Assembly (NCBI GenBank): GCA_020629965.1
Contig: JAHDCG010000003.1
Coordinates: forward strand, 1 to 64,000
Direction: 5' to 3'
Length of the DNA stretch: 64,000 nucleotides
Source: Saprospiraceae bacterium
GTDB lineage: Bacteria; Bacteroidota; Bacteroidia; Chitinophagales; Saprospiraceae
A program made the position numbers and the translations under genes. Of the stretch, positions 27,179 to 44,202 are shown piece after piece. The notes under the pieces were generated by a model that was not told the DNA's origin, made no database searches, and saw only the letters and a program-made list of their open reading frames with translations. Numbering within the stretch: position 1 is the first letter of the stretch; each line of letters starts with the position of its first letter.

Positions 27179-30100
27179 ATGTTCCGTAGATTTACCTCTC
27201 GGTCAGAAAACCAAGTCCGTTCCCGCGTTTTCTCCCCGACAAAAAACACCTCCGGTTTGCAAAAAATCGGGATTTCCTGTCTCTTTTTGCTCGCCTTTTT
27301 ATTAGGGCAAAATATCGCGCAGGCGCAATGCTCAATCGGCTGCGACAGCAACCCCAACTCTGTCGTCTTACCGTTAGATGCGACCGGCAACGAGATGATT
27401 ACCGAGCAGTTTTTCAGTCCGTTCTACAGCTCTGACGACTGCAGCAACGGACAGGTAAACCTCTACGCCGACGCAACTCTGCTGACGCCTTACGTCTCGC
27501 CCAATTTCAACTGCAACAACATCGGCGACACAGAACAGGTGTGGCTCACCGTCAGCGACGGCAACGGCAATAATGAAAGCGCATTTTGCGAATTCGTAGT
27601 CACCATCGCCGACACCTACGTGCCCGATTTGACTTGCCCCGCCAACGTCAGCCAACCGCTGACCGCTAATAACTGCAACGGCGTCGTCAACAACATCGCG
27701 CCCCTACTCGCTTACGACAACTGCGCGGGTCTGAACGTCACCTACACCCTTTCGGGTGCGACGACGGGCAGCGGCAGCACCGACGCAAGCGGCACGACTT
27801 TCAACCCCGGCGTCACGACCCTGATGTACACCGCAACGGATAACGTCGGCAACTCTACTTTCTGCTCTTCTACCGTCGCTTTGACCTTTCCGCAGGGCGC
27901 AGTCATCAACAACTGCCCCGCCGATACGACCGTACCGACCGACCCGGGCACTTGTAATTATACACTCAATTATTCCGCCCCGAATATGGTCGATAACTGC
28001 CCCGTTACTTTCACGGCGGCAGCGGGCAACACGCCTTCGGGTACTGTCGTCGCACCCGGCGATTACAATTTGGAATTTACTTTCAATAACGGTGCGGATA
28101 ACTTGTCTTGCATGTACACCGTCAGTGTACGCGACCAAGAAGACCCGACAATGATTACGGCGGATCAGTCGATTACCACTTCGGGCTGTACCGCAAATTA
28201 TTCTTACAATGCAGCCTCCGATATCTCCGACAACTGCTCGGCAAATGCGGATTTGACCATCAACTATACCTTGAGCGGTAACGGCGCATTCGTAGTCGGC
28301 ACCGGCGCGAATATTACCAATCAGGTACTGAACGTCGGAGTATATACCATCGCTTTCACCGTCACCGACGAGGCGGGTAATTCCGTGAATCACTCTTGGG
28401 AATTGGAAGTTTTGGAAAATATTTTACCTGTGGCGCAGGCGATGGATATTACCGTAGAATTAGACCTCAACGGCGATGTCACCGTCAACGCGGAAGATGT
28501 GGACGACGGCAGCTCGGATAACTGTTCGGCTTTGACTTATGAAATTGCACAAGATGAAAACAACGACAACATGCCCGACAACGTACCGGGGGCGGATTGG
28601 CGTGCATCTTTCGATTACGATTGCAGCGATGTGACCGGCACCCGCCGCGTTTTGCTCCGCGTTATCGACGCCAACGGCAATATCAGCAGCCCCGTTGCGG
28701 CGGCAAATATCACCGTAGAAGACAACTTGACTCCCGTGGCACAGTGCCAGGACATTACCGTTACTTTGATGAACGGCGGCAACGTCACCGTCGATGCGGA
28801 TGATTTGGACTCGGGCAGCAGCGACAATTGCAACACGATTACCAACTACGAAATTACCGTAGATACCAACGGCGACGGCGTTTATGACAGCGGCTATGCG
28901 GCGAATTACACCGTGATGTGTCCGACTCCGAGCACCGGCTTTTTGCGCGCAAAAATGCGTGTCACCGACTCTTCCGGCAGCATGACCGAGTGTTTGGCAA
29001 AAATCAATACGCTCGATAACACGCCGCCCGTGGCGATGGCGATGAATTTCACGGCAAATATCGGAGCCAACGGCACGGTAACGGTCAGCGCGGCCGGTTT
29101 TGACAACGGCAGCAGCGAAGACTGTAACGCTTTTAACTTCACTTTTGCACTTTCACAAAACGGAGTTTACACCGCAGGCAAGACTTTCGATTGCTCACAA
29201 ATCGGCACTTACAACGATGTTTACCTGCGCGTCACCAACACCTCGGGCATGTCCGACACGGCCGGTCCGGTGACTTTAACCGTTCAAGACAATACGGCGC
29301 CGACCGCCGACTGTGTCACGTCGTTGACCCTCGGCTACGACGCTTCCGGCAATATCAGCGTACCCGCTGCGATGTTGAACAACAACAGCAGCGACAACTG
29401 CGCGGGTTTGAGTTTCGCCGCTACAAGTACCACGACCGGCACTTTCGGCACGAGTGTCGATACCATGTGTGCTTTTGCTCCGAGCACGGATTTGATTTTG
29501 CGTGTGCGCGATGCCTCGAATAACACTTCTTTCTGTACCGTCAGCGGCGGCAACATCACCGTTATCGACACCATTCCGCCGACGGCGGCTTGTAACTCTT
29601 TCAGCGTTGCTTTAGTTTCGAGTACGGTTGTCGTTTTCAAAAATCAAGTCAACGCACAATCCGTCGATGCCTGTAACGGCACCGTGCCGAGTGCAAACAT
29701 CAGCATTGCCCGCGTCGAAAACGGCACGGTCGGCACTTACGGCAACAATGTCACCTTCGACTGCGACGACACCGGTATGCAAATCGTCAAACTCCGCGCT
29801 ATGGACAGTGCCGGTTTGATGTCAACCTGCGACGCGACTATCACCATACAGGAGACACAACCGCCCGTTTTCACCGGTACACCCGCCAACCCGACCACGG
29901 TAGAATGCAGCGACTACACCGTCAACGGCGCACAGTCATTCGATGCACAAGCAACGGCAACCGACAACTGCGGCACACCCGTGATTACTTTTTCCGACAA
30001 CGCGAGTTTATCTTCTTGCCAAGTCGGTACCGTCATTCGTACTTACACCGCAACCGACGCCAACGGCAATACCGCTACCGCTTCGATTACTTTAAATATC

Positions 30101-32986
30101 GTCGATACCACCGCACCGACTTTCACCGCACCCGCCGATTTTAACGGCGAATGCGCGGCGGGCGGCAGCGGTTTCGGCTTAGCAAACGCCGGCGAGGTAA
30201 CGGACGAGGCGGATAACTGCGACCCGCAGGCAACGGACGGCGGTCTGCGCGAAGCTACGGAAAGCACGTTGCACGGTTATTTCGATTTCATGTCACACAC
30301 GAATACAACGGCACCGAACTACGATTTTTCTCCTTCTACATGGACTTCCGGCGGCACACCCGATGTAACGGGCGCACCCGCTTCGATTTTCATCAATACG
30401 GGTGATACTTTTGTAAAAGCTGCACCGGCGACCGGTTTCTACTCTTTTGATTTTGTCAAAACCGGCAGCAACAATGATATTTTCCAATACTACGACAACA
30501 ACGTTTTCACGGCAGCAACGGGCAACTCCGGCAGAATTACGGTAGCCGTCACGGCGGGTCAAAATATCGGTTTCCGCGTCATCAATGCGGGCAGCGGTAC
30601 GACTAATGTGACTATCAGCAACTTCACTTTCGCTGACTCTTCGGTTGCGCCGGCATCTATCGGTTGCGCAAATAATTTCGACGTGGCACGGGTTTGGGAA
30701 ATGACCGACTGCCAAGGCAACAGCGCGGAACCGCAGTTGCAGCGCGTGCGCGTACAGGACACGACGGCGCCGGCTTTCAATTTCACGGTACCGGCGGTTA
30801 TTTCTTCACCGGATGACAACTGCTCTCCTTTTGTAGATTTGGATATGAGTATAGTCGGTCGTCTGATTGAAGAATGCAATTTGGACAGTGTCAGAAATAC
30901 CGCAGCGGTTGATTACGGAAAAGGAAACGGCGAAGAAGATGCGAGCGGATTTTACGCTCCGGGTACTTATTCCGTAACTTTTACGGCTTATGACGGATGC
31001 AATTCGCCGACTGTATTCACGATAGATTTCGTTGTCGAAGACGACACCAACCCGACTTTGGTTTGCCATGATTTGGTAAATGTCACGATTGACAATACCG
31101 GCTCGGTGACCTTAACGCCGAGTACCTTTATCAGCAGCGTAACGGACAACTGCGGCTTGAACAACACCGCTTTCACCGTCACACCGAATATGTTTACCAA
31201 TGACGATTTCGGTCTCAACGGCGTGGTCGTTTCGGTGGAAGATGCGTCGGGTAATGCCACGACTTGTAACTCGGTTGCCAATGTAGTCGGCAGCGTAGAA
31301 TACGACGCGGCGGAAGTCAGCGGTGCGGCAACAAGCACCATCACTTTACCGATTATCACGCGTCACTTTACCGACATCAATTCTTTCCAAATGACGGTCA
31401 ACGTCACCGACACCACGGTAGCGAAAATCGTCGGTATTTCGGGTTTCAATCCGGCTCTGACGGGTACGGGCAACTCGAATATCCTCAACGGCGGCGAGGC
31501 GGACGTCTCTTACTTCGACGGCAATTTTAACCTGCCCGATTTGGACGATGCGGTGCTTTTCAACGTAGAAATCGAACTGCAAAACGCAGCGACCGGCTCG
31601 ATTACTCCGGTTACTCTGACCGATGTACTGAGCTTCCGCGACGATGCCGGCGGCACCCCGCAGTCCGTACCGACTTTGACTTTCGACGGTTCGGCGGAAA
31701 TCTCTGCGGCGGCAAGTTTGCGTCTGCTTGCGGGTAATATTATGACCATCGAAACGGCGGAAAACATGGACAGCGTCACCGTTAATTTGACGGGCACGAC
31801 GACCAATTCTTTCCTCACCACAACCGACGGTAACTACTCGTTCAGCGTACCGGCGGGTGCCGACCAAACGGTGACACCTTTTAAAGATACCAACTGGCGC
31901 AACGGCGGAAACGTCAATATTCTCGACGTACTGCAACTGCACCGTTTGTCTTTGGGCATCGACAGTTACATCAGCGGTCAGCAGCAAATCGCGGCGGACT
32001 CCGACGGCGACAACACCGTGAATATTCTCGACGTACTTTTGGCACACCGCATCAGTTTGGGTACGATTTCGGAAATTCCGAGTAACACCTCTTGGCGTTT
32101 TATTTCAACTGAAAATCCCGTGCCCGCTGCGCCTTTGACTTCGGGTTTCCCCGAGTCGCGTACTTACACCAACATTTTGAGCGATATCAGCAACGCTCAT
32201 TTTGCGGGTATCAAAATCTGTGACGTCGCCGCACCTTACGCCTCGGGCATCGGCTTCACGAGCGACGACGAAGACGAAGCACGCGACAGCGAGACTTTGA
32301 TTTTCGAGACGGAAAATGCAAGCGTAAATGCGGGCGAAGAAATGAGCGTGTCTTTAACGGCGAAGGATTTCAACTCGATTTCCGCTTACCAATTCGACGT
32401 GCTTTTCGATGCGGAATACCTGCAACTCAACTCGGTCACACCGGGTACCATCGACAACATGGATGCCGAAAATTTCAATGCTAACCAAAGCACAAACGGC
32501 ATCTTGAAAACGGACTGGTACAACCTGCACCCCGTCGCTCTGACGGACGGCGAAGTGTTGTTTACTTTGAATTTCACGGCGTTGCAAAGCGGCGTACAGT
32601 TGAGCGATATTTTCTCGGTGAATGCCGACGAAAGCACGGCTTTCCACTACACCGCAGCGAACGAAATCGGTGACATCGACCTCGACTTCGGCACGAGCAC
32701 TTCCGTCGCGCCGACTCCGGACAGCGGTTTTGCCTTATTGCAAAATAAGCCGAATCCTTTCGCCGGTCGCACCTTGATACCTTTCGTATTACCCGAAAAC
32801 GGCACGGCGACTTTAACGATTTTCGATGCAGCCGGTAAGGCGATTTTCTTAGAAGAAATCGACGGACAGCGCGGCTACAATGAGTTCGACATCGACGCCG
32901 AAGCCTTACCCGCTACGGGTATTTTCCACTACCGTCTCGACAGCGAGGCCGGCAGTGCGGTGCGCAAAATGGTAATCTTACGCTAA
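27179..32986 (+). CDS. Giant T9SS surface protein with HYR-like, cohesin-like and dockerin-like modules
   Basis: This 1935-aa protein has a signal peptide with a long N-region (hydrophobic core about residues 30-45, cleavage near AQAQ). Residues about 55-1360 are HYR/Ig-like repeats, many with the paired cysteines and DNC core (TCPANVSQPL, NCPADTTVP, SDNCS). At about 1367-1500 lies a cohesin-like beta domain (SFQMTVNVTD, ADVSYFDGN). At about 1565-1635 lies a dockerin dyad whose second loop, DSDGDNTVNILD, is canonical; the first has a two-residue insertion. At about 1705-1840 a second cohesin-like domain (AYQFDVLFDAEYLQL, ILKTDWYN) follows. The end is a T9SS type A sorting domain (NKPNPFAGRTLIPF). 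A large adhesive or scaffold role is inferred. Strong terminator downstream. Confidence 0.85.
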   Translation: MFRRFTSRSENQVRSRVFSPTKNTSGLQKIGISCLFLLAFLLGQNIAQAQCSIGCDSNPNSVVLPLDATGNEMITEQFFSPFYSSDDCSNGQVNLYADATLLTPYVSPNFNCNNIGDTEQVWLTVSDGNGNNESAFCEFVVTIADTYVPDLTCPANVSQPLTANNCNGVVNNIAPLLAYDNCAGLNVTYTLSGATTGSGSTDASGTTFNPGVTTLMYTATDNVGNSTFCSSTVALTFPQGAVINNCPADTTVPTDPGTCNYTLNYSAPNMVDNCPVTFTAAAGNTPSGTVVAPGDYNLEFTFNNGADNLSCMYTVSVRDQEDPTMITADQSITTSGCTANYSYNAASDISDNCSANADLTINYTLSGNGAFVVGTGANITNQVLNVGVYTIAFTVTDEAGNSVNHSWELEVLENILPVAQAMDITVELDLNGDVTVNAEDVDDGSSDNCSALTYEIAQDENNDNMPDNVPGADWRASFDYDCSDVTGTRRVLLRVIDANGNISSPVAAANITVEDNLTPVAQCQDITVTLMNGGNVTVDADDLDSGSSDNCNTITNYEITVDTNGDGVYDSGYAANYTVMCPTPSTGFLRAKMRVTDSSGSMTECLAKINTLDNTPPVAMAMNFTANIGANGTVTVSAAGFDNGSSEDCNAFNFTFALSQNGVYTAGKTFDCSQIGTYNDVYLRVTNTSGMSDTAGPVTLTVQDNTAPTADCVTSLTLGYDASGNISVPAAMLNNNSSDNCAGLSFAATSTTTGTFGTSVDTMCAFAPSTDLILRVRDASNNTSFCTVSGGNITVIDTIPPTAACNSFSVALVSSTVVVFKNQVNAQSVDACNGTVPSANISIARVENGTVGTYGNNVTFDCDDTGMQIVKLRAMDSAGLMSTCDATITIQETQPPVFTGTPANPTTVECSDYTVNGAQSFDAQATATDNCGTPVITFSDNASLSSCQVGTVIRTYTATDANGNTATASITLNIVDTTAPTFTAPADFNGECAAGGSGFGLANAGEVTDEADNCDPQATDGGLREATESTLHGYFDFMSHTNTTAPNYDFSPSTWTSGGTPDVTGAPASIFINTGDTFVKAAPATGFYSFDFVKTGSNNDIFQYYDNNVFTAATGNSGRITVAVTAGQNIGFRVINAGSGTTNVTISNFTFADSSVAPASIGCANNFDVARVWEMTDCQGNSAEPQLQRVRVQDTTAPAFNFTVPAVISSPDDNCSPFVDLDMSIVGRLIEECNLDSVRNTAAVDYGKGNGEEDASGFYAPGTYSVTFTAYDGCNSPTVFTIDFVVEDDTNPTLVCHDLVNVTIDNTGSVTLTPSTFISSVTDNCGLNNTAFTVTPNMFTNDDFGLNGVVVSVEDASGNATTCNSVANVVGSVEYDAAEVSGAATSTITLPIITRHFTDINSFQMTVNVTDTTVAKIVGISGFNPALTGTGNSNILNGGEADVSYFDGNFNLPDLDDAVLFNVEIELQNAATGSITPVTLTDVLSFRDDAGGTPQSVPTLTFDGSAEISAAASLRLLAGNIMTIETAENMDSVTVNLTGTTTNSFLTTTDGNYSFSVPAGADQTVTPFKDTNWRNGGNVNILDVLQLHRLSLGIDSYISGQQQIAADSDGDNTVNILDVLLAHRISLGTISEIPSNTSWRFISTENPVPAAPLTSGFPESRTYTNILSDISNAHFAGIKICDVAAPYASGIGFTSDDEDEARDSETLIFETENASVNAGEEMSVSLTAKDFNSISAYQFDVLFDAEYLQLNSVTPGTIDNMDAENFNANQSTNGILKTDWYNLHPVALTDGEVLFTLNFTALQSGVQLSDIFSVNADESTAFHYTAANEIGDIDLDFGTSTSVAPTPDSGFALLQNKPNPFAGRTLIPFVLPENGTATLTIFDAAGKAIFLEEIDGQRGYNEFDIDAEALPATGIFHYRLDSEAGSAVRKMVILR

Positions 32987-32996
32987 TGTTTCAGCA

Positions 32997-33041
32997 GCAG
33001 ACGATGCACCGATTTTTATCGGTGTATCCTCTGCCTTTTTT
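32997..33041 (+). terminator. Intrinsic terminator after the first giant gene
   Basis: The nested stem GCAGA / GATGCACCGAT with ATCGGTGTATC / TCTGC is followed by CTTTTTTG. Confidence 0.85.
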
Positions 33042-33047
33042 GTTTTT

Positions 33048-33240
33048 GTTGAATTGTTGAATCGTTGAATTGTTGAGCGCACTTGTTCGCAATATTGTAT
33101 TTCAATGCAAGATTTCACAGTCTTTTCTCTTAAGAAGAGAAAGAGTCGAATATCATAAAAATTTTGCATTTGTGTAAAGTCCTCAACGATTCAACAACTC
33201 AACGATTCAACAAAAAATAACAATTCAACAAAAAATAAAA
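33048..33240. repeat. Inverted GTTGAATCG repeat blocks between the giant genes
   Basis: GTTGAATTGTTGAATCG units (33048-33078) follow the first gene, and CAACGATTCAACAACTC units (33182-33231) precede the second. The two blocks are complementary and could form one long stem of about 30 bp around a loop of about 100 nt. The 344-nt gap otherwise contains only the terminator and an AT-rich stretch. Confidence 0.75.
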
Positions 33241-33330
33241 GCCTGAAATTCCGCAATTACTGCTCTTAGAAAATCAACCCCGCGCCAACCTCGATAACCC
33301 TACGGTAAAAAAATCTTTCCAACAAATATT

Positions 33331-36300
33331 ATGAAAAACAAATTATATACCCTGCTCATCCTGCTGCTCTGCGGCACCTCCGTCTTCGGTCAGGTGACTT
33401 TTACGGCCGTCGATGTGTTCTCCTGCACCGACAGCGGCACGGCCGTTATGGACTTTACGATAAATACCGACGAAAATCTCGGGGCTTTTCAATTTGCCGT
33501 TATTTGGGACACCAACGTTTTGGATAATGCGGTCTTGGAAGATGTCAGCCTCGGTAACAGCTACGACTCGGCGGACGGCGCGACTATCACGGACGGCGAG
33601 CTGCGCGTGGGTTGGTTTAACGCCGGCAATGACGGAATTTTTGCTCCCGACCAAGTGCTTTTTCGCCTGACGTTCGACCACGTATCCGGCAGCGCGAACA
33701 CGGCAATCGTCGATATTACCGACCTGCCCGGCTATCAGGTTTTGGTGGCGCGTGATGATTTCAGCAACATCCCCGCCGACCAAATTACGCTCGACGACGG
33801 CACGATGTCTTTTACCGATACGGAAAGCCCCGTTATCAATAACTGCCCGGCGGATATTACCGTCACCGTGCCTTTCGGCAGCAGCGGCGGCGCCGCAACT
33901 TGGGCGGATGTCGATGCAACGGACAACTGCACAACACCCGTATTGACCAACTCTCACAACAGCGGCGACACCTTTCCGCTCGGCACGACGGCGGTAACGA
34001 TTACGGCGAGCGATGCAATGAATAATGTGTCTGCGCCCTGCGAATTTACCGTGACCGTGGAGGAAGAAGCGAACCCCGACCCCTTCGTCATTTCGATTTC
34101 GGACGAAGAAACGGGCTGTGAAGATTTGACGGTGACATTTGATTTTACGACCGATAATTTTACGAATATGTCGGCAACGCAATACGGCATCACTTGGAAT
34201 CCGGCGGTGTTGGAATACGTCGGTAACAGCGATGTTTTTTCCGGCGTCAATAATTTTAACGAAAGCGAAGCCGCTAACGGCGAACTGCGCGTCGGTTGGT
34301 TCGACGGCAACGGTTTTACCTTGCCCGACGGCTCCTTGCTGTACCGCCTGACCTTCAACTTTTTGGGCGCGACGGGACAAACGGCAAATATTCAAATCGC
34401 GGCTTTGTCCGACTACCCGATTATTTTTGTCAACCAAAACGGACAGATTGACGCAGCAAATTATACCTTAAACCCCGGCTCTGCGGTGCGCGTACAAAAC
34501 AACCCGCCGACCTTTACCGACTGCCCGGCCAACTTAACCGTCGATAACGACGCGGGTATCTGCGGCGCGGTTGTCAACTTCGCATTGCCGACCGTTAATG
34601 AAGATTGCGACGCGGATATTGAAATTTTACAAACTTCCACTTTGGGCAGCGGCGACACCTTTGCCGTCGGCACGGAAACCGTCACCTACGAAGCCACCGA
34701 CAACGTCAATCAAACCGCGACCTGCACTTTCACCGTCACCGTCAACGACGCGGAAGCACCTGTAGTCAGCGACTGCCCCGCCAACATCACCTTAGCGGCA
34801 CCGGCGGGTGAATGCGCAGCAACCGCGACCTGGACTCCGCCGACCGCGACCGATAACTGCGGCACGGTAACGCTGACCTCCTCTCACGCCCCGGGCGACT
34901 CCTTCCCCGTAGGCGACCCGACCGACGTGGTGTACAGCGCAACGGACGACGCGGGACAAACCACGGTTTGCGCCTTTATGATTACTGTCATCGACGACGA
35001 AAGCCCCGTATTCAGCGGCTGCCTCGAAGACATCAGTCAGCCGACCGACAGCGATGCCTGCACAACGAGCGTCACTTGGACGGCACCGACCGCGACCGAT
35101 AACTGCGGCAATGTGACGGTCACGACAAATATTTCTCCCGATACGGATTTCGCCCTCGGCACGACACAAGTCACTTACACTGCGACCGACGACGTAAACA
35201 ACAGTTCATTTTGCTCTTTCAACGTGACGGTTTTCGATAACGTTTTTCCGCAAATTACCTGCCCCGACGACACAGCAGTGCAACCGACGGATGATTGCGA
35301 AGGTATTGCAACCTGGACGGCACCGACGCCGACCGACAACTGCACGATTGCAACTTTCAGCTCGACGCACGACTCGGGTGATATTTTCCCCGCCGGTACC
35401 ACGACCGTGACCTACACGACGAGCGACGGCGCGAACAACGAAAGCACCTGCTCCTTCGATGTCACCGTCGAAGCTGTGAATAACTTGATTTTCGGGGCTT
35501 GCCCGCCCGACCAAACCGGCGACGCGGGCGCGGAATGCAGCGCGACCGCAACTTGGACGCCCCCGACCGCAATGAATACGTGCAACGGCGAACCGACTCT
35601 GTCATCAAATTATAATCCCGGAGATGATTTTCCGCTCGGTTCGACCGTTGTCGTTTATACGGCGGAAAATGCGGACGGACAGACCGCGAGTTGCTCTTTT
35701 ACTGTCACGATAACGGGCACCGGCGAAGTCATTTTGTCAGACTGCCCGGCGGATATTACGGTGACGGCAGTACCGGGCGCAGACAGCGCAACGGCAAGCT
35801 GGACACCGCCGACGGCGACCAATTCCTGCGACGGCAGCACCGTCACGGCTAACGGTACGCACGCCCCGGGTGATGCTTTTCCGATCGGCACGACGGAGGT
35901 GACTTACTCGACGAGCGATGCGGACGGCAACGTGATTTCCTGCTCATTTAACGTGACCGTCGAGGCGGGCGCAGAACCCGTTGACCCTTTGATTTGCCCC
36001 GAAAATGTTACGGTGAATACCAACCCCGGTTTGTGTTCTGCGGTGACGGGCGATTTGTCGGCGATGACTGCGGACTCGATTACGACTTTGACTTACGAAC
36101 TCGACGGCGCGATGGTCGGCAGCGGAAACGGTCAACTCATCGGCATGACTTTCGTCGAAGGCGAAACGACCGTGACCTACACGGCGGGCACCGATGCGGG
36201 CAGCACTTTTACCTGCTCCTTTACGGTGACGGTGACGGATGCGGAAAACCCCGTTTTAACTTGTCCGGCGGACATTGACATCGAACTGCCGGAGGGCGAA

Positions 36301-39300
36301 ACCGAAACACCGGTGACTTGGGATTTGGCGACGGTAACGGATAATTGTTCGACGGCTTTAACGCCGACTTCCGACTCGATTTCGGGTAATGTGTATGCGC
36401 TCGGTTTGTACCAAATTACTTTCACGGCGACCGACGAAGCGGGGAACGACGGTACATGTGTCTTTTCTTTGAACATTGAAACGGAAGAAAATACCGGCGG
36501 CAATGATTGCACGGCGGCGGCGGGTACGCTTGCTTTGGCGCAGGTAAATTATCTGCTCGACGAGACGACCGGCACGGTAACAGTCACGGGAACGGATAAC
36601 GACGACTCGACCGTACCGACGGATTACGAAGTGATTTACGTCTTGACGACGGGCGCGGATTTTACAATTGCTGCCTTAACTACGGACAATCCCGAATTTA
36701 CCATCGACGCGGAAGGTGATTATGCGATGCACATTTTGGTCGCGGAAACTTCCGACTCGAACAGCGATGATTTCTTAGATTTATCGGTTATTGAAATCGA
36801 CACGACAACGGCGGCGGATGTAGTTGCTTTGATAAACGGCAGCGACATTTGCGCGGCATTAAATGCAAACGGAACACCGTTTACGGTCAGCGCGGAAGCG
36901 AACGAAGATTGCACGATTGAGTTTACCGATTGCCCGACGACGATTGTACAGACGACCGATACCGGCATCTGCGGGGCGGCGGTCGAGTGGGAAGTACCGG
37001 GCGTGACGGGCGATTGCAACTACGTCATTTTTGAACCCGAATTCAGTCCCGGCGATACTTTGCCCGTAGGCAATACGACGCTGACTTATGTTTTAACGGA
37101 CGAAAATAATAATTCGACCGGCTGTACTTTTACCATTACGGTGACGGACGACGAAATGCCGACGGTAGATTTTTGCCCCGCGCCGATTACGGTAGGTAAT
37201 ATGGCGGGCGAATGTCAAGCGAGTGTGGTGTGGATGGAGCCGCAATTCAGCGATAACTGCGCAATTACCCAAAACAACGCGACGCACGACAACGGAGATA
37301 TTTTCACCGTCGGCAGTCACCTCGTCATTTACACGGCGAGCGATGCGGCGGGAAATACAGTGACTTGCAACATTAACATCACGGTAGAAGACAACGAGAT
37401 GCCCGTCATTTTGAACGTACCGAACGACATTATCGTCGATACCGATGCGGGCGAATGCGGGGCGATTGTGGCTTTTGCCGCACCGTCTTATTTCGATAAT
37501 TGCCAAATTACCAACAGCTTCTGCTCGCGTACTTCGGGCGAATTTTTCGACAAAGGCACGACGACTGTGACCTGTACTGCCTTTGACGAAGCGGGTAACA
37601 TGACGACGGAAACCTTTACGATTACCGTCGTCGACAATGAAGCACCCGAGTTTGCCTGTTCCTCTCCTGTCGCAGTTAATGCAGACGGAACGATTATCAG
37701 CGACCCGAGCAATATTTTGGACGGGGTGAGTAATGCGGGTTGCAACGAAATTGAAATTAACTTCACTCTACCCGAGGCAACGGACGCATGTTCGCCGCCG
37801 GTCACGGTGACACAGACGGCGGGTGTTTTCCAAAACGGCGATGTTTTTCCCGTGGGTATGCACATCTTAGAATATACGGCAACCGATTTTGATAACAACG
37901 ATAAAGTCTGCACGCTGAACATCACCGTGGAAGAAGAAGCGGGGCCGCAGATTGCTCCCGATTTCGAGAATGGCCTCTGTGAAGGGACGAGCGGAAAGCT
38001 GTGCGTAGATGCGACAGCGGGTTCGACTTTTGCTTGGTTCAGTCCGCAGGGTGAGTTGGTTTCCTCTTTAAACTGTGCGGAAATCGACAACGCAAACGAA
38101 GCCGACGCGGGCGAATACTCGGTCAACATCATTTCACCGTCGGGCTGCGTGACGCAATCGACTTACAACTTAATCATCTTCTCGGATGCGCAATTAGTCG
38201 TCGAGGTCGAGCCGATTTTGTGTGCGACGGGCGAAGAGAACTTGGAATTTACGGTGACGGACGTTGAAAATACCAATGTACAAAGCTACGATTGGACGGG
38301 ACCGAACAGCCTGACTTCTAACGTGCAAAACCTGGTCGTGCCGAACGTCGGTACGCAAAGCGCGGGCATTTACGAACTGACGGTCGTCAACGCCAACGGT
38401 TGTACCACGCAGGTTTCTACGGAAGCCATCGTAACCGAAGCCCCCGACGCGCCCGGCATTACGACGGCAACGCAGTTGATTTGTGTGGGCGAAACGGCGA
38501 TTTTGAACGCGAACACCGACGCGCCCGCCAATGCGACTTACACTTGGACGGCAACGCCTCCCGAAGGTGCGGGACTGCCTGCAATGTCCGACAGCCCGCA
38601 GATTACCGTAGCCCCGACGACGGGCGCGAACGTGACTTACTTTTTGACGGTCACGACGGACGGCTGTGTCTCGGAACCGGGCAATTTGACTTTGATACAA
38701 GAGTCGGCCCCGACGACTTCCATCGAGGCGGAAGGCGATAATTTGTGTGTGACCGGCGACGAAGATTTCACGCTGACGGAAACGGGCGGCGAAGCGGCGG
38801 CATGGAACTGGACCGGTCCGAACGGATTTTCGGCGACGGGCAGCAGCATCACTTTGAGCGGATTGACGGCAGCGGATGCGGGTTCGTACACGGTGACGGC
38901 GGCGAGTTCTATCGGTTGCGAAACGGCGGCGAGTTACCAACTCAACGTAACGGAAGTACCGACGGGCCTGACGGCGGCTTTTGCGGATGCGGAATTGTGT
39001 GAAAACGAAAGCGCGACTTTGCAAATCAGCGGCTTCACCGGCAACGGCGTGACTTACATTTATAACGACGGCAACGCGGATGTGACAACAACCAACACGA
39101 CGGTTAATCTCGGCTTATTTGACGCGGCAAATTACAGCTACACCGTCACGGCAACGGCCGACGGTTGTACCTCCGAACCGACGGAGGCAACCCTTTCCGT
39201 ACAGGCGGCACCGACGGCAAATATTACGCAAACGGGCGACGAAAACTGTGTGAAAGACGGCACGACCGTGACCCTGACGGGCGGCGGTGACGCGGCGACT

Positions 39301-40275
39301 TATACATGGCAGCGCAACGGCAACAGCACCGTCATCAGCGACGCGTCGGCTTTAACTTTTGAAAATATCGACGAAAACGACTCGGGCATTTACACTTTGA
39401 CGGCGGCGAGTTCCTTCGGTTGTACGACGACGGTTTCGGAAGAGTTGACTGTCTCGGAAGCGGTGGAACCGGTGAGCGTCAATTTCAGCAACGACGGTTG
39501 TATGGGTGAGGTTTTGCAGTTGCAGGCGGAAGACGACAACGTAGGTTTGAGTTACCGTTGGTTGCTCGACGGCACGGTGCGCTACACCGAGCAAAATCCG
39601 ACAATCGACTTTCTCTCGGCGACGGATGCGGGTGATTATCAGGTCATTGCTTTCGACCCGGAATCAGGCTGTGCGGATACTTCGGAAGTCAGAAAACTCA
39701 ATATTTTGACCGAACCGATTACCGCGCCGGACATGGCATTCATCTTTCTGCCGACCACACACATCGAAATTATCGTCACGGAAAACGACGATTTGCCGCT
39801 GAACACGGATTACACGGTGACTATTTTTCAGCAACCGGAATTCGGGCGCATCGAGGTTATCGACGCGACGAAGGGTCACTTCGACTACATCCGCGAGACC
39901 GACCGCGCGCGCACCGACCGCTTTTTCTACGAAATTTGCTACGATGACTGCGACCGCGCCTGTGAACGCGAAATGGTCACGGTGGAGATTTTGTACAACG
40001 ACGAGGAGTGCGTAACGACTAATCTGATTTCTCCGAACGGCGACGGTACGAACGACGAGTTCACGATTTACTGTCTGGAAAACGGAGATTTCCCCGATAA
40101 CGAAGTCAGCATTTACAATCAATGGGGCGACCGCGTCTTCCGCGCTGCACCGTATATGAACGACTGGACGGGTACTTTTGAAGGCGAAGATTTGCCGGAC
40201 GGTACCTACTTTTACACGTTCAGAAGAGATGCAAACTCGGAGATGAAGAAGGGGAGTTTGACGATATTCAGGTAG
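33331..40275 (+). CDS. Giant HYR-repeat adhesin with cohesin-like domains and T9SS type B sorting domain
   Basis: This 2314-aa protein has a signal peptide (residues 1-21, SVFGQ). Two cohesin-like domains lie at about 22-155 and 250-385, sharing the signature GELRVGWF and a YRLTF/FRLTF strand. About a dozen HYR modules follow (CPADITV, CPANITLA, DNCGTVTLTSSHAPGD) to about residue 1540. Then come Ig/PKD-like modules with WTGPNG and DAGxYTVTAAS motifs, a cadherin-like module and a type B (CHU_C) sorting domain from about 2225 (LISPNGDGTNDEF, NQWGDRVF, DGTYFYTF). Type B cargo such as SprB needs a PorP/SprF partner, which is the next gene. It is a likely surface adhesin or filament. Confidence 0.9.
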   Translation: MKNKLYTLLILLLCGTSVFGQVTFTAVDVFSCTDSGTAVMDFTINTDENLGAFQFAVIWDTNVLDNAVLEDVSLGNSYDSADGATITDGELRVGWFNAGNDGIFAPDQVLFRLTFDHVSGSANTAIVDITDLPGYQVLVARDDFSNIPADQITLDDGTMSFTDTESPVINNCPADITVTVPFGSSGGAATWADVDATDNCTTPVLTNSHNSGDTFPLGTTAVTITASDAMNNVSAPCEFTVTVEEEANPDPFVISISDEETGCEDLTVTFDFTTDNFTNMSATQYGITWNPAVLEYVGNSDVFSGVNNFNESEAANGELRVGWFDGNGFTLPDGSLLYRLTFNFLGATGQTANIQIAALSDYPIIFVNQNGQIDAANYTLNPGSAVRVQNNPPTFTDCPANLTVDNDAGICGAVVNFALPTVNEDCDADIEILQTSTLGSGDTFAVGTETVTYEATDNVNQTATCTFTVTVNDAEAPVVSDCPANITLAAPAGECAATATWTPPTATDNCGTVTLTSSHAPGDSFPVGDPTDVVYSATDDAGQTTVCAFMITVIDDESPVFSGCLEDISQPTDSDACTTSVTWTAPTATDNCGNVTVTTNISPDTDFALGTTQVTYTATDDVNNSSFCSFNVTVFDNVFPQITCPDDTAVQPTDDCEGIATWTAPTPTDNCTIATFSSTHDSGDIFPAGTTTVTYTTSDGANNESTCSFDVTVEAVNNLIFGACPPDQTGDAGAECSATATWTPPTAMNTCNGEPTLSSNYNPGDDFPLGSTVVVYTAENADGQTASCSFTVTITGTGEVILSDCPADITVTAVPGADSATASWTPPTATNSCDGSTVTANGTHAPGDAFPIGTTEVTYSTSDADGNVISCSFNVTVEAGAEPVDPLICPENVTVNTNPGLCSAVTGDLSAMTADSITTLTYELDGAMVGSGNGQLIGMTFVEGETTVTYTAGTDAGSTFTCSFTVTVTDAENPVLTCPADIDIELPEGETETPVTWDLATVTDNCSTALTPTSDSISGNVYALGLYQITFTATDEAGNDGTCVFSLNIETEENTGGNDCTAAAGTLALAQVNYLLDETTGTVTVTGTDNDDSTVPTDYEVIYVLTTGADFTIAALTTDNPEFTIDAEGDYAMHILVAETSDSNSDDFLDLSVIEIDTTTAADVVALINGSDICAALNANGTPFTVSAEANEDCTIEFTDCPTTIVQTTDTGICGAAVEWEVPGVTGDCNYVIFEPEFSPGDTLPVGNTTLTYVLTDENNNSTGCTFTITVTDDEMPTVDFCPAPITVGNMAGECQASVVWMEPQFSDNCAITQNNATHDNGDIFTVGSHLVIYTASDAAGNTVTCNINITVEDNEMPVILNVPNDIIVDTDAGECGAIVAFAAPSYFDNCQITNSFCSRTSGEFFDKGTTTVTCTAFDEAGNMTTETFTITVVDNEAPEFACSSPVAVNADGTIISDPSNILDGVSNAGCNEIEINFTLPEATDACSPPVTVTQTAGVFQNGDVFPVGMHILEYTATDFDNNDKVCTLNITVEEEAGPQIAPDFENGLCEGTSGKLCVDATAGSTFAWFSPQGELVSSLNCAEIDNANEADAGEYSVNIISPSGCVTQSTYNLIIFSDAQLVVEVEPILCATGEENLEFTVTDVENTNVQSYDWTGPNSLTSNVQNLVVPNVGTQSAGIYELTVVNANGCTTQVSTEAIVTEAPDAPGITTATQLICVGETAILNANTDAPANATYTWTATPPEGAGLPAMSDSPQITVAPTTGANVTYFLTVTTDGCVSEPGNLTLIQESAPTTSIEAEGDNLCVTGDEDFTLTETGGEAAAWNWTGPNGFSATGSSITLSGLTAADAGSYTVTAASSIGCETAASYQLNVTEVPTGLTAAFADAELCENESATLQISGFTGNGVTYIYNDGNADVTTTNTTVNLGLFDAANYSYTVTATADGCTSEPTEATLSVQAAPTANITQTGDENCVKDGTTVTLTGGGDAATYTWQRNGNSTVISDASALTFENIDENDSGIYTLTAASSFGCTTTVSEELTVSEAVEPVSVNFSNDGCMGEVLQLQAEDDNVGLSYRWLLDGTVRYTEQNPTIDFLSATDAGDYQVIAFDPESGCADTSEVRKLNILTEPITAPDMAFIFLPTTHIEIIVTENDDLPLNTDYTVTIFQQPEFGRIEVIDATKGHFDYIRETDRARTDRFFYEICYDDCDRACEREMVTVEILYNDEECVTTNLISPNGDGTNDEFTIYCLENGDFPDNEVSIYNQWGDRVFRAAPYMNDWTGTFEGEDLPDGTYFYTFRRDANSEMKKGSLTIFR

Positions 40276-40288
40276 AGGCGGCGAGGTC

Positions 40289-40402
40289 GAGTCGCTCCCG
40301 GTAGGGTTCCCCCGATTCGGGGGCTGAAAACGCGGGTTCCTGCTCGTCTTCAGCCCCCTAACCCTCCGCGACTAAAGTCGGGACAGGCCGAATCGGGGGA
40401 AC
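40289..40402. repeat. Foldback element, copy 2
   Basis: It starts GTCGCTCCCGGTAGGGTTCC, continues CCCGATTCGGGGGCTGAA, and ends CGACTAAAGTCGGGACAGG and CCGAATCGGGGGAAC. It shares its ends and inner CGTCTTCAGCCCCCT with 10585-10705. The rest of the 40276-40603 gap holds only the porP leader repeat. Confidence 0.7.
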
Positions 40403-40548
40403 TTTCTCCGGGCTTGAGTTTTGGATAACTCTTAATTTTTTTGCTCCGTGACTTATGAAATTGAGGTCACAAAACATTCAACAAATCCTTCTTTGCAAAA
40501 AGAAGGAAAATATAAGAAACAGAATTTGAGATTTTGGTAAAGGCAGCA

Positions 40549-40595
40549 GTCTAACGTCTATCGTCTAATATCTAACATCTCAAATCTCAAAATCT
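40549..40595. repeat. Leader repeats before porP, TCTAACGTCTATCG family
   Basis: TCTAACGTCTATCGTCTAAT followed by ATCTAACATCTCAAATCTC runs to within 9 nt of the ATG. It is the same family as at 14339, 53265 and 59990. Confidence 0.75.
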
Positions 40596-40603
40596 ATACA
40601 AAA

Positions 40604-41548
40604 ATGAAATACATTTTAACCCTGTCCTTACTCATTTGCACGGCACTACTTTTGCAGGCACAACAAGAGCCGCAGAACAGTTTTTTCATGTACAATCAAG
40701 CGATGTACAACCCCGGTTCGGTGGGCAGCAAAGACTACGCTTCGGTAAATGCGATTTATCGGCAGCAGTGGGTCGGCTTCGAGGGGGCACCCGTTTCGCA
40801 GATGCTGACTTTCGATGCGCCTCTGGTGGGTGACCGTGTGGGTATCGGCATTTCGGTGCGTCACTATACGATTGGTTTGACGACGGACTGGCGGGCGTCG
40901 ATGGCGTATTCTTACAAAATGCAGATTACGCCGGATGCGACTTTGCGCTTCGGAATTCAAGGCTCGGTGCATTACTTGGGTATGGATTTTAACGGAAATG
41001 ACGTCATTACGGATAAAGACAACGACCAATCTTTCGTTAATCAGCCGGCGAATAAATACACAGGAAATGTGGGCGCGGGTCTGTATTTCAACCTCAAAAA
41101 TGTGCTGTGGGCGGGAATTTCCACCCCGGCTTTTTATCCGGTGACTTTAGGAAATAACGACGATGTACTCGTGACGGCGACGGAAGCACCGCACTTTTAC
41201 GGGGCCTTCGGCGGGCTGTTGGATATGTCGGAAACCATTCAATTCAAACCTTCCGTGCTGCTGAAATACACGCCGGATGCGCCTTTGGATATGGACGTGA
41301 ACGCAAGCGTGGTTTTTAATCGCTCGTTTATGGTCGGCGCGACTTACGGTCTCGGCGGTGACGGCGGCGGCGACGATGCAGTCTTTTTGGCGGGCTACCA
41401 AATTTTACACAATCTGATGTTGGGTGTTTCTTACGGGCTGCCGTTGTCGGGTTTGAGTGAGACGAATGACGGGAGTTTTGAGGTGCTGCTGCGCTATGAT
41501 GTGAAGAGTGAGAAGGATGATTTGGAAAACCCGAGGTTTTTTAATTGA
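40604..41548 (+). CDS. PorP/SprF family T9SS outer-membrane protein
   Basis: This 314-aa outer-membrane protein has a signal peptide (to about residue 20, LLLQAQ) and the PorP/SprF signature start: QNSFFMYNQAMYNPGSVG, then YRQQWVGFEGAP and DRVGIGISV. The rest is a beta-barrel with aromatic-edged strands. SprF-like proteins are required for secretion or surface attachment of type B-sorted cargo, each usually encoded next to its own adhesin, as here after the 2314-aa protein. The adjacency is the main evidence for partnership. A foldback element lies in the gap to the adhesin gene, so separate transcription is possible; the leader repeat points the same way. Confidence 0.92.
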   Translation: MKYILTLSLLICTALLLQAQQEPQNSFFMYNQAMYNPGSVGSKDYASVNAIYRQQWVGFEGAPVSQMLTFDAPLVGDRVGIGISVRHYTIGLTTDWRASMAYSYKMQITPDATLRFGIQGSVHYLGMDFNGNDVITDKDNDQSFVNQPANKYTGNVGAGLYFNLKNVLWAGISTPAFYPVTLGNNDDVLVTATEAPHFYGAFGGLLDMSETIQFKPSVLLKYTPDAPLDMDVNASVVFNRSFMVGATYGLGGDGGGDDAVFLAGYQILHNLMLGVSYGLPLSGLSETNDGSFEVLLRYDVKSEKDDLENPRFFN

Positions 41549-41827
41549 GAAACTTTTTACGCGGAGTGATTTTTCTTTTACGCTGATTGATACCTGTCCC
41601 GTACTTCAGTCGGGATGATTCAGTATGATTTTCGCTGAATACTTCTATGACTCGGACGCTGAAGCTTTTTTTGAATTTTCGTGAATAAAATTTACAACGA
41701 AGTAAAATGAGGCAGGAAAAGAACAGCGTAAAACCTTAAAAATCATAAAGGACAGCGTAAAAAGAATCAGCGTAAAATCTTAAAAAATCATAACAAATCA
41801 GCGTAAAAAGAACAGCGCAAAAATCCC
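41549..41827. repeat. Trailer and leader repeats, TTTTTACGC / AATCAGCGTAAAA family
   Basis: After the porP stop come TTTTTACGCGGAGTG and TTTTACGCTGATTG. Toward the OmpA gene (41712-41827) come five units of the complementary form (ACAGCGTAAAA, AATCAGCGTAAAATC). Between them is CCCGTACTTCAGTCGGG (41586-41602), a REP-like core. No gene is seen in this 344-nt gap. Confidence 0.75.
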
Positions 41828-41892
41828 CTGTTCCCGTAACCGATTTACACGACCGAAAAACATTTTTAAGCCACGTCGTGACAACCGAGAAA

Positions 41893-44202
41893 ATGATGAA
41901 ACATTTGAAAATAATAATTTGCTGGTCTTTGTGCAGCCTTGCCGTCTCGGTAATGCAGGCGCAGATTGTCCTGTCGGACAGTCGCGTGACGGTGCGCAAC
42001 GAGGCGGAGGTAAACAGTGCGGATTTGGAGTATAGTCCGGCTTTTTACGAGGACGGAATTGTCTTTGTGACCAACCGACACGAAAGTCTGAAAGCAACGG
42101 TAACGGACACACGCATCGACGAAAACATCATGTCGCTGTACGAAGCGCGGCGCGACGATGCGGGATTTTTGGGTAACGGCAGCCTTTTTTCCGCCGAACT
42201 GCTGGAGCGGGTACACGAAGGGCCGGTGACTTTTAACCGCACGGGCGACAAGATTTTTTTTACACGGAATATTTTGGATAAGAAGCAACGGGCGAGCGAC
42301 GGTAAGCGCAAATTGATGATTTATGCGGCGGAGAAAAAAGGGAATGAGTGGACGAAACCGGAGCTTTTGCCTTTCAACAATGCAGAGTTTAACAGTGTGC
42401 ATCCGGTGGTCGGCGCGACGGACTCTATCCTCTATTTTGCGAGTGACCGACCGGGCGGTTTCGGCGGCATGGACTTGTATCGTACCGAAAAAATGAACGG
42501 TGACTGGACGGAACCCGAAAATTTGGGAGAGAGCATAAACACCGGCGGCAACGAAGTTTTCCCGTTTTTTCACCCCGACGGCACGCTGTATTTTTCTTCG
42601 GACAATCACGGCAGCTTGGGCGGTTTGGATATTTTCATGACGCGCAAGAGCAGTGAGTCTTGGGAGCAACCACAAAATTTATTACCGCCTTTTAACAGCA
42701 GCGACGACGATTTCGGCTTTATTGCAGACCTACAAAATCGTAACGGTTATTTTTCTTCCAATCGACCGGGCGGCGCGGGCGAAGACGACATTTATTCCTT
42801 CAAAGCCTTCGGCGAAAACAGAAGTACGGCAGACAACAAAAAGGAAAAAATCGAAACCGAAGAAATCGAAGTGACCGACGCGGAGGGGATGCCTTTAGAA
42901 AATGTGCGGCTTTCGCTCGTAGGTCTGAATGATATTTTTGTCGGAAAAACCAATGACGGCAAAGGTACGGTGCGCCTCGTGCCGAGCGGAAAACCGGGAG
43001 AATTTACCCTGCAAATCGACGAAAACGATAACCTCTACGCCGAGGCGACAACGGACATCAACGGCAATGCCGCCTTGACTTTCGACAAAAACGGCAACTA
43101 CATTTTATCCGTTGAAAAAGACGGCTACATCCCCAAGCAAATCCTCGTCGATGCGAATACGGATTGGGAAAATTTGGATTTCACTTTGCAAAAACAATCG
43201 GAGTGCGTCGCTCTCAGCGGCTACGTGCGCGTAGCGGGTAAAGCGGACGGCGCGGGCAACACGGAAGTCCTCTTCACCGACACGGAAACGGGCGCGGAAA
43301 CGAAGGTATATACCAAACCCGACGGCACTTATGTACACTGTTTGCCCTGCGGAAAATCGTTTTCCGTCTATGCAATGAAAAACGGCGTTTACACTCCGGG
43401 GCAGATTATCAAAGTCGATGCGGCAGACTGCACCGTAGGAAAAAACATGCAGCAGGATTTCACTTTCCCGACCGACCCGGGCGTGGCTTTACGCGAAAAC
43501 GACATCGTGGAATTGCGGAATATTTACTTCAATTTCAACGACGCAAGCATTCGCCCCGACGCGGAAAACGACCTTTACGCCGTACTGCAAATGCTGCAAA
43601 ACTTCCCGGGGCTTGCCATCGAACTCGGCTCGCACACCGACGCACGCGGCAGTGCCGGTTACAATCTCGACCTCTCCCGCCGTCGCTCGCAGAGTGTGCG
43701 CAATTGGCTGACAAACAAAGGAATAGACATCAACAGAACGGCGGCGGTCGGCTACGGCGAGTCGCTGATACGCAACGGCTGCACGGACGGCGTACCCTGC
43801 ACGGAGGCAGAGCATCAGGAAAATCGCCGCACGGAATTTAAAGTCATCTCGGCGGACAGTCCGCTGCTCGGCAAGGTTAATCCGCCCGTTTTTCGGGAAA
43901 ATAATAAAGCACAAATCAACGTCAGTCCGACGGATAATGCCGCGAATGCCTACCGGATTATTTCGATTAAAAAAGATGCACCGTATTTGCCGCACAGCGT
44001 GATTGCGGGCACCTTCGGCAGTTATGCGAATGCGGAGAAAAGATTGCGTCAGTTGCGCGATTTCGGTTGCGCCGAAGCGGTCATCAAAGGGCGTGCGGAC
44101 GGTATGCACGTGGTGGAAGCGGAACGATTTGCGGAGCGTGAAAAGGCGGAACGATTGGCGGAGAAACTGGAAGAAATCGGGATTGGCACCTATGTTTTAT
44201 AG
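41893..44202 (+). CDS. OmpA-family envelope protein with PD40, carboxypeptidase-regulatory-like and SPOR regions
   Basis: I start this 769-aa protein at the ATG at 41893 (GTG at 41878 is also open), giving a signal peptide to about residue 22 (SVMQAQ). WD40-like PD40 repeats follow, to about 270 (YFASDRPGGFGGMDLYR, YFSSDNHGSLGGLDIF). Two carboxypeptidase-regulatory-like modules lie at about 285-520 and an OmpA peptidoglycan-binding domain at about 535-650 (IYFNFNDASIRPDA, SHTDARGS, NRRTEFKV). An SPOR-like C-terminus (AGTFGSYANAEKRLRQL) ends the protein. This is the usual third gene of adhesin-PorP-OmpA sets; it probably ties the secreted surface structure or its translocon to peptidoglycan. 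Confidence 0.92.
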   Translation: MMKHLKIIICWSLCSLAVSVMQAQIVLSDSRVTVRNEAEVNSADLEYSPAFYEDGIVFVTNRHESLKATVTDTRIDENIMSLYEARRDDAGFLGNGSLFSAELLERVHEGPVTFNRTGDKIFFTRNILDKKQRASDGKRKLMIYAAEKKGNEWTKPELLPFNNAEFNSVHPVVGATDSILYFASDRPGGFGGMDLYRTEKMNGDWTEPENLGESINTGGNEVFPFFHPDGTLYFSSDNHGSLGGLDIFMTRKSSESWEQPQNLLPPFNSSDDDFGFIADLQNRNGYFSSNRPGGAGEDDIYSFKAFGENRSTADNKKEKIETEEIEVTDAEGMPLENVRLSLVGLNDIFVGKTNDGKGTVRLVPSGKPGEFTLQIDENDNLYAEATTDINGNAALTFDKNGNYILSVEKDGYIPKQILVDANTDWENLDFTLQKQSECVALSGYVRVAGKADGAGNTEVLFTDTETGAETKVYTKPDGTYVHCLPCGKSFSVYAMKNGVYTPGQIIKVDAADCTVGKNMQQDFTFPTDPGVALRENDIVELRNIYFNFNDASIRPDAENDLYAVLQMLQNFPGLAIELGSHTDARGSAGYNLDLSRRRSQSVRNWLTNKGIDINRTAAVGYGESLIRNGCTDGVPCTEAEHQENRRTEFKVISADSPLLGKVNPPVFRENNKAQINVSPTDNAANAYRIISIKKDAPYLPHSVIAGTFGSYANAEKRLRQLRDFGCAEAVIKGRADGMHVVEAERFAEREKAERLAEKLEEIGIGTYVL

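What the first reader, a model, noticed from the sequence alone, without database searches (positions are those of the whole stretch)
27179..44202. Cohesin-like and dockerin-like modules in a T9SS adhesin locus with PorP/SprF and OmpA
Two adjacent giant secreted proteins carry cohesin-like domains (two in each), and the first also carries a dockerin dyad with one canonical loop (DSDGDNTVNILD). The second has a type B sorting domain and is followed by its PorP/SprF partner gene and an OmpA/PD40/SPOR gene. Neither giant protein has a recognisable catalytic domain. A cohesin-dockerin interaction could therefore build an extracellular, non-cellulosomal scaffold: one protein anchored by type A sorting, the other by type B, tied to peptidoglycan by the OmpA protein. 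I infer the assembly; the modules and gene order are seen.
Basis: partly seen in the sequence, partly recalled or inferred. Interest (0 to 1): 0.7.

Follow-up and report, generated by a model that had tools for sequence, protein, structure and literature searches.

The report
Self-clasping cohesin-dockerin module in surface proteins
Two neighbouring giant surface proteins of a Saprospiraceae bacterium carry the lock-and-key modules known from cellulosomes; here the key (dockerin) is probably matched to a lock (cohesin) in its own protein chain, in a cassette repeated about twenty times in the genome and found in most members of the family.

Summary
P1 (27179-32986) has cohesin, CnaB-like X module, dockerin, cohesin and a type A T9SS tail. 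P2 (33331-40275) has two divergent cohesins, HYR and Ig repeats and a type B tail, followed by a PorP/SprF gene and a PorE-like OmpA gene. The host belongs to Saprospiraceae. X-dockerin-cohesin-type A tail is a fixed cassette there: 20 of 24 X-dockerins in this genome are followed by a cohesin. The genome also encodes an 8-cohesin, SprB-repeat, type B scaffoldin. The proposed P1-P2 scaffold is only partly supported. In 177 cassettes the canonical dockerin recognition positions of one binding mode co-vary with the binding face of the cohesin in the same chain (z = 10; phylogeny-aware p = 2e-7; the alternative mode shows nothing). AlphaFold2 gives pTM 0.87 for P1's X-dockerin-cohesin across a disordered linker, which implies docking within the chain. 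Best reading: a cohesin-dockerin clasp inside each protein, just before the anchoring signal. Separately, multi-cohesin type B scaffoldins and tail-less free-dockerin proteins could form true trans assemblies. No description of this was found in the open-access library. New variant of a known kind; binding is untested.

The parts
27179..32986 (+). P1, 1935 aa: HYR-like repeats, cohesin 1, X module, dockerin, extension, cohesin 2, type A T9SS tail
31301..31663 (+). P1 cohesin 1 (scaffold-clade type), residues 1375-1495
   Evidence: 19.4 bits PF00963, below cut-off; 26 bits with relatives' scaffold-cohesin HMM; groups with scaffold cohesins in the tree; not confidently folded by AF2
31724..31891 (+). 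X module (CnaB / CarboxypepD_reg-like), residues 1516-1571
   Evidence: 66 bits with the X HMM (the training alignment included P1); CarboxypepD_reg in 79 of 107 relatives; AF2 pLDDT about 92-98
31892..32074 (+). Dockerin, residues 1572-1632; recognition residues I1581, L1582 (repeat 1, positions 10 and 11), H1623 (repeat 2, position 17), G1628 (position 22)
   Evidence: PF00404 22.9 bits in the excised fragment, 107 of 107 relatives match; helices at AF2 pLDDT 94-97; 84% identity to the congeneric ortholog; co-variation positions
32075..32239 (+). Extension closing the X-dockerin unit (NTSWRF ... FAGIKICDV), residues 1633-1687
   Evidence: conserved in the cassettes; DOC-EXT coupling z 11.7
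32276..32707 (+). P1 cohesin 2 (cassette-clade type), residues 1700-1843; binding-face residues D1779, Y1781, F1822, Y1824
   Evidence: PF00963 42.7 bits; Foldseek best hits are cohesins, E 7.7e-8; co-variation with the dockerin
32729..32983 (+). Type A T9SS sorting domain
   Evidence: TIGR04183 35.4 bits, cut-off 23
33331..40275 (+). P2, 2314 aa: cohesin A, HYR, cohesin B, HYR repeats, Ig domains, type B T9SS tail
33391..33795 (+). P2 cohesin A, residues 21-155
   Evidence: 33 bits with relatives' scaffold-cohesin HMM; conserved in ortholog; joint profile of P1/P2 cohesins hits PDB cohesin 3l8q, E 2.4e-4
34072..34476 (+). P2 cohesin B, residues 248-382
   Evidence: 75 bits with relatives' scaffold-cohesin HMM; ortholog 69 bits
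40015..40266 (+). Type B T9SS sorting domain (CHU_C)
   Evidence: PF13585 E 8.1e-24; TIGR04131 45.2 bits
40604..41548 (+). PorP/SprF-like outer-membrane anchor of the type B protein
   Evidence: TIGR03519 207 bits; one of 21 paralogs in the genome
41878..44202 (+). PorE-like protein: PD40, CarboxypepD_reg, OmpA, SPOR
   Evidence: NF052230 PorE 287.6 bits, below the 600 cut-off

Best explanation
P1 is one of about 20 Saprospiraceae surface proteins in this genome that end in a fixed cassette: X module, dockerin, extension, cohesin, type A T9SS tail. In this cassette the dockerin is most likely bound to the cohesin that follows it in the same chain, through a canonical single-mode dockerin-cohesin interface (helix 1 of the dockerin on the cohesin 8-3-6-5 sheet). 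The result is a compact, probably calcium-dependent clasp just before the membrane-anchoring signal. I propose that it folds after secretion, locks the base of the adhesin into a mechanically strong stalk and spaces the long HYR arm from the outer membrane. P2 is a separate type B adhesin held by its PorP-like protein and tied to peptidoglycan by the PorE-like protein; its two cohesins and P1's first cohesin belong to the scaffold clade and could receive free dockerins. Shown by computation: modules, cassette, genome-wide spread, co-variation within the chain. Predicted: docking in cis (AF2). Inferred: calcium dependence, stalk role, timing, and what P2's cohesins bind.
For: Cassette order is invariant in 124 cassettes, and 224 of 237 dockerins have a cohesin right behind them (many loci were picked for the cassette). 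In the own genome, an unselected set, it is 20 of 24. Mean-field DCA on 177 cassettes: the strongest dockerin-cohesin couplings fall on canonical recognition positions of one binding mode (repeat 1 positions 10 and 11, repeat 2 positions 17 and 22) and on cohesin strands 6 and 8; z = 10.2 for that mode and 1.6 for the other, 8.7 and 1.7 without P1 and its ortholog. Phylogeny-aware: 9 independent losses of Thr10, 8 of them on lineages that also lost the facing Ser of the cohesin (background 0.113, p = 2e-7); control position in repeat 2 p = 0.48. AF2 of P1 1511-1850: pLDDT 90.5, pTM 0.87 across a linker of pLDDT about 47; independent domains would give about 0.53-0.56. The coupled strand-6 residue aligns with CipA Leu83 (CipA sequence from memory), the site that I take to match Leu-79 in the single-mode R. 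flavefaciens complexes (PMC5429695). Foldseek best hits are cohesins. A PorE-PorP-type B CTD complex is known (PMC9143113).
Against: Co-variation within a protein cannot separate docking in cis from pairing between two copies of the same protein. AF2 coordinates and PAE were not available, so the interface was not seen; docking is inferred from pTM. Meff is only 171, and control pairs also rise above shuffles (X-COH z 6.1, COH-TAIL 8.2), so part of the signal is shared ancestry. Most dockerins in the family carry the common T10 with S and E combination, so cross-binding among paralogs and scaffoldins is possible. P1's own recognition residues (IL and HR) belong to a class of only two sequences here. 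The mechanical role is untested.
Confidence: 0.62

Rival explanations
1. Trans scaffold: P1's dockerin binds the cohesins of P2, or P1's cohesin 1, linking type A and type B surface proteins into an extracellular network.
For: P1-P2 adjacency is conserved in a congeneric genome. P1's dockerin is internally symmetric and the best conserved P1 module measured, and differs from the other dockerins of the genome at recognition positions. P1 Coh1 and P2 cohesins form a weak subclade with two own-genome proteins that also have divergent dockerins (support 0.66).
Against: Dockerin recognition residues co-vary with the cassette cohesin and AF2 docks P1 Coh2 on X-dockerin. P2's cohesins lack the Ser and Glu found at the coupled positions in most cohesins. 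Nothing shows P1-P2 contact.
Confidence: 0.2
2. Domain-swapped homotypic assembly: the dockerin of one P1 copy binds cohesin 2 of another copy, giving dimers or chains of the same protein on the surface.
For: It gives the same co-variation as docking in cis; the linker between dockerin unit and cohesin is flexible (pLDDT about 47).
Against: The AF2 single-chain model already docks the modules in cis; anchoring of each copy at its C-terminus makes cis docking the local event.
Confidence: 0.12
3. The dockerin and cohesins are inherited structural spacers: calcium-binding and beta-sandwich folds kept only for stability, with no specific partner.
For: The first calcium loop is degenerate in P1; cohesin folds resemble other beta sandwiches; neither protein has enzymes.
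Against: Specific co-variation at canonical recognition positions in one mode only; AF2 docking; a family-wide scaffoldin locus exists.
Confidence: 0.06

Closest known systems
Cellulosome cohesin-dockerin system (Clostridium, Ruminococcus)
   Same: Cohesin and type I dockerin folds; recognition positions and cohesin 8-3-6-5 face; X-dockerin dyad; single binding mode as in R. flavefaciens group 1 dockerins (PMC5429695).
   Different: No glycoside hydrolase or CBM in P1 or P2; dockerin and partner cohesin in one chain; T9SS anchoring; partner is most likely the own chain.
Cellulosome-like system of Ca. Stygibacter (Cloacimonadota, PMC8542988)
   Same: Gram-negative cohesin scaffoldin with a T9SS-type C-terminal domain and dockerin proteins.
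   Different: Its dockerins sit on enzymes and the passages read describe no dockerin-cohesin cassette; here the cassette dominates and the scaffoldin is a type B, SprB-repeat protein.
Noncellulosomal cohesin and dockerin proteins (Archaeoglobus, ANME archaea PMC9012536, Peer et al. 2009, the last known only through citing papers)
   Same: Cohesins and dockerins in organisms without cellulosomes, sometimes in one protein.
   Different: In the passages read the partner was not assigned; here co-variation and AF2 point to the own chain, in a conserved cassette with a sorting signal.
PorE-PorP-type B CTD complex and SprB/SprF (PMC9143113)
   Same: P2, P3 and P4 have the same parts and gene neighbourhood: type B cargo, PorP-like barrel, OmpA/PD40 protein.
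   Different: P2 carries cohesins; P4 scores below the PorE cut-off and has a SPOR domain.

Membership tests
Dockerin type I (PF00404) | Profile score at or above the curated cut-off | tested here: inconclusive
   18.0 bits in whole P1 (cut-off 22.9), exactly 22.9 in the excised fragment; all 107 relatives match at E <= 0.01
Dockerin type I (PF00404) | Duplicated loop-helix with two calcium loops | tested here: inconclusive
   Duplicated helices predicted with pLDDT 94-97; loop 2 canonical, loop 1 lacks acidic ligands (sequence)
Dockerin type I (PF00404) | Binds a cohesin | not testable with these tools
   Indirect only: co-variation with the cassette cohesin and AF2 pTM 0.87
Cohesin (PF00963), P1 Coh2 | Profile score and fold | tested here: met
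   42.7 bits, cut-off 24.1; Foldseek best hits are cohesins, E 7.7e-8, TMt 0.68
Cohesin (PF00963), P1 Coh1 and P2 CohA/CohB | Profile score at or above the curated cut-off | tested here: not met
   19.4 bits for P1 Coh1; 21.8 bits for the P2 fragment. Related by a scaffold-cohesin HMM (26, 33, 75 bits), tree and PDB profile hit: cohesin homologs, not Pfam-grade members
Cellulosome | Scaffoldin with CBM plus dockerin-bearing carbohydrate enzymes | tested here: not met
   No catalytic or CBM domain in P1 or P2; genome scaffoldin has 8 cohesins, 8 SprB repeats, type B tail and no CBM hit
T9SS type A and type B cargo | C-terminal sorting domain above the curated cut-off | tested here: met
   TIGR04183 35.4 bits (P1), TIGR04131 45.2 bits (P2)
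PorP/SprF | TIGR03519 above cut-off | tested here: met
   207 bits against 90.55
PorE (P4) | NF052230 score above the curated cut-off | tested here: not met
   287.6 bits against 600; shares propeller-type PD40, CarboxypepD_reg and OmpA, so it is PorE-like only

The most novel reading that the evidence does not exclude
Saprospiraceae run a two-tier cohesin-dockerin surface system. Most X-dockerins are locked to a cohesin in their own chain before a type A tail, while a conserved type B scaffoldin (3-10 cohesins plus SprB repeats, with a small one-cohesin type A protein beside it) captures a minority of free-dockerin proteins that have a Sec signal but no recognised T9SS tail, such as trypsin-like peptidases. 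These could reach the surface by riding on a T9SS cargo.
Probability: 0.25. Interest if true: 0.85.

Novelty: new variant of a known kind. Interest (0 to 1): 0.68.

Why it matters
Cohesin-dockerin pairs are known as the glue between different proteins. Here the same pair appears to be used inside one protein, as a clasp next to the anchor, in hundreds of T9SS proteins of a family that is abundant in sewage plants and the sea. If true it gives a large natural set of orthogonal cohesin-dockerin pairs, a testable role in T9SS surface display, and a new place to look for non-cellulosomal scaffolds. It also warns that finding both modules in one genome does not by itself mean a scaffold.

Tried and rejected
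P1-P2 trans scaffold as the leading mechanism: demoted after the co-variation and AF2 results. A shared scaffoldin as partner of all cassette dockerins: fits the higher within-genome conservation of dockerins (0.54 mean identity against 0.32 for the cohesins) but not the per-chain co-variation. Free dockerins as frameshift artefacts: no cohesin or tail reading frame follows in the two checked downstream. AF2 of P1 Coh1 was of low confidence (pLDDT about 40-65). Promoter and terminator scan gave no clear excess over shuffles. Peer et al. 2009 is not held in the library.
Full report
What is there. The window lies in a 6.5 Mb genome. The loci encoding the cassette in named records are almost all Saprospiraceae. 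P1 and P2 are as described: P1 has HYR-like repeats, a weak cohesin, an X module, a dockerin, a strong cohesin and a type A T9SS tail; P2 has cohesin, HYR, cohesin, many HYR and Ig domains, and a type B tail, followed by PorP/SprF and a PorE-like PD40/OmpA/SPOR gene. In the only congeneric genome sampled, P1 and P2 orthologs are adjacent, and the dockerin is the best conserved P1 module measured: 84% identity against 52% for the HYR part, 68% for Coh1 and 55% for Coh2.

It is not a lone oddity. The same genome has 18 dockerin matches at E <= 0.001 and 25 cohesin matches. Aligning them shows a fixed C-terminal cassette: X module, dockerin, an extension with the motif NTSWRFVDADYVFP...FPE...FxAVKIGDVN, cohesin, type A tail. 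Profile search finds 24 X-dockerins in the genome; 20 are followed by a cohesin and 4 end in a stop right after the extension. In the family 37 of 41 sampled genomes have cohesins above cut-off and 39 of 41 have dockerins. In a phylum-wide sample of 297 genomes the cassette was found in 5 genomes of the same family and in only 2 of other families.

A scaffoldin exists, elsewhere. C133:58407-65372 encodes 8 cohesins, 8 SprB repeats and a type B tail, preceded by a 259-aa one-cohesin type A protein and followed by its own PorP gene. The same pair of genes (one-cohesin protein, then a giant with 3-10 cohesins) recurs in about a dozen sampled genomes, several times with a cassette protein directly upstream. 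Cohesins fall into two groups: those of the cassettes and those of scaffoldins and type B adhesins. P1 Coh1 and both P2 cohesins belong to the second; support values are moderate (0.84 for the cassette clade, which also takes in three divergent cohesins; 0.66 for the P1/P2 subclade).

Who binds the dockerin? I aligned 177 cassettes and ran direct-coupling analysis. Of the seven dockerin-cohesin couplings in the top 100, six fall on canonical dockerin recognition positions of one binding mode: repeat 1 positions 10 and 11, repeat 2 positions 17 and 22. They mostly face cohesin strand 6 (KTDWYN in P1) and strand 8 (AFHY). Against 40 shuffles the mode-1 score has z = 10.2 and the mirror mode z = 1.6; without P1 and its ortholog 8.7 and 1.7. 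Module pairs used as controls give X-COH 6.1, EXT-COH 2.6, DOC-TAIL 2.0 and COH-TAIL 8.2, with smaller absolute scores than DOC-COH, so shared ancestry contributes but does not explain the focus on one binding mode. On a tree built without the tested columns, Thr10 was lost 9 times, 8 of them where the facing cohesin Ser was also lost (p = 2e-7), while the equivalent position in repeat 2 shows nothing (p = 0.48). The pairs make chemical sense: Arg17 mostly faces Asn or Asp, Gln17 mostly Phe or Tyr.

Structure. AF2 on P1 1511-1850 gave pLDDT 90.5 and pTM 0.87, although the linker between the dockerin unit and the cohesin has pLDDT about 47. Two independently placed domains of these sizes would give about 0.53-0.56, so the model places the cohesin firmly on the X-dockerin unit. 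I could not see PAE or coordinates. The best structural matches are cellulosomal cohesins. The coupled strand-6 residue aligns with CipA Leu83 (CipA sequence and numbering from memory), which I take to correspond to Leu-79 of the R. flavefaciens complexes, where helix 1 of the dockerin binds the 8-3-6-5 sheet in a single mode (PMC5429695).

Mechanism. The most economical reading is a cohesin-dockerin clasp inside each protein, next to the anchoring signal, giving a firm calcium-dependent base for long adhesive arms. Steps shown: modules, cassette, co-variation. Step predicted: docking in cis. Steps inferred: calcium dependence, mechanical role, order of folding. P2 is held by PorP and PorE-like proteins, as known for type B cargo (PMC9143113). 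What P2's cohesins bind is open. Candidates are free dockerins: besides the four in this genome, relatives have them on trypsin-like peptidases and sortilin/BNR propellers, without any recognised T9SS tail.

Novelty. Searches of the open-access library for cohesin and dockerin with Saprospiraceae, T9SS, SprB or the genus names found no description. The nearest are Ca. Stygibacter (PMC8542988) and ANME archaea (PMC9012536). Subscription papers, among them Peer et al. 2009, could not be read. I rate it a new variant of a known kind.

Noticed in passing
G000 C117:21871-25218, C133:24287-27490, C185 (L253:2589-4526), C272:78163-79680: Four own-genome proteins end right after X-dockerin-extension, with no cohesin and no recognised T9SS tail (free dockerins); similar free dockerins in relatives sit on trypsin-like peptidases or sortilin/BNR propellers (L167, L254, L255, L164, L257).
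   Followed up: partly
G000 C133:57112-65372 (L141): Scaffoldin locus: one-cohesin type A protein, then a protein with 8 cohesins, 8 SprB repeats and a type B tail, then a PorP/SprF gene; the two cohesin genes are conserved side by side in about a dozen sampled Saprospiraceae genomes.
   Followed up: yes
G000 C236:17912-20815 (L033): An animal-type haem peroxidase carries the X-dockerin-cohesin cassette: a rare enzyme among the cassette proteins.
   Followed up: no
G000 C6:18892-24489 (L038): Type B adhesin with four or more N-terminal cohesins, SprB and PKD repeats, with a PorP gene directly before it (C6:17800-18690).
   Followed up: partly
window 22815-26333, minus strand: Subtilase-like (S8) protein with a type A T9SS tail, transcribed divergently from P1.
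   Followed up: no
window 26355-26395, minus strand: Rfam match DUF805b RNA (RF02914, 38.9 bits), just upstream of the subtilase-like gene.
   Followed up: no
G000 C133:48282-54044 and C236:60139-64413: Two different proteins with nearly identical C-terminal cassettes, as if copied by recent recombination.
   Followed up: no
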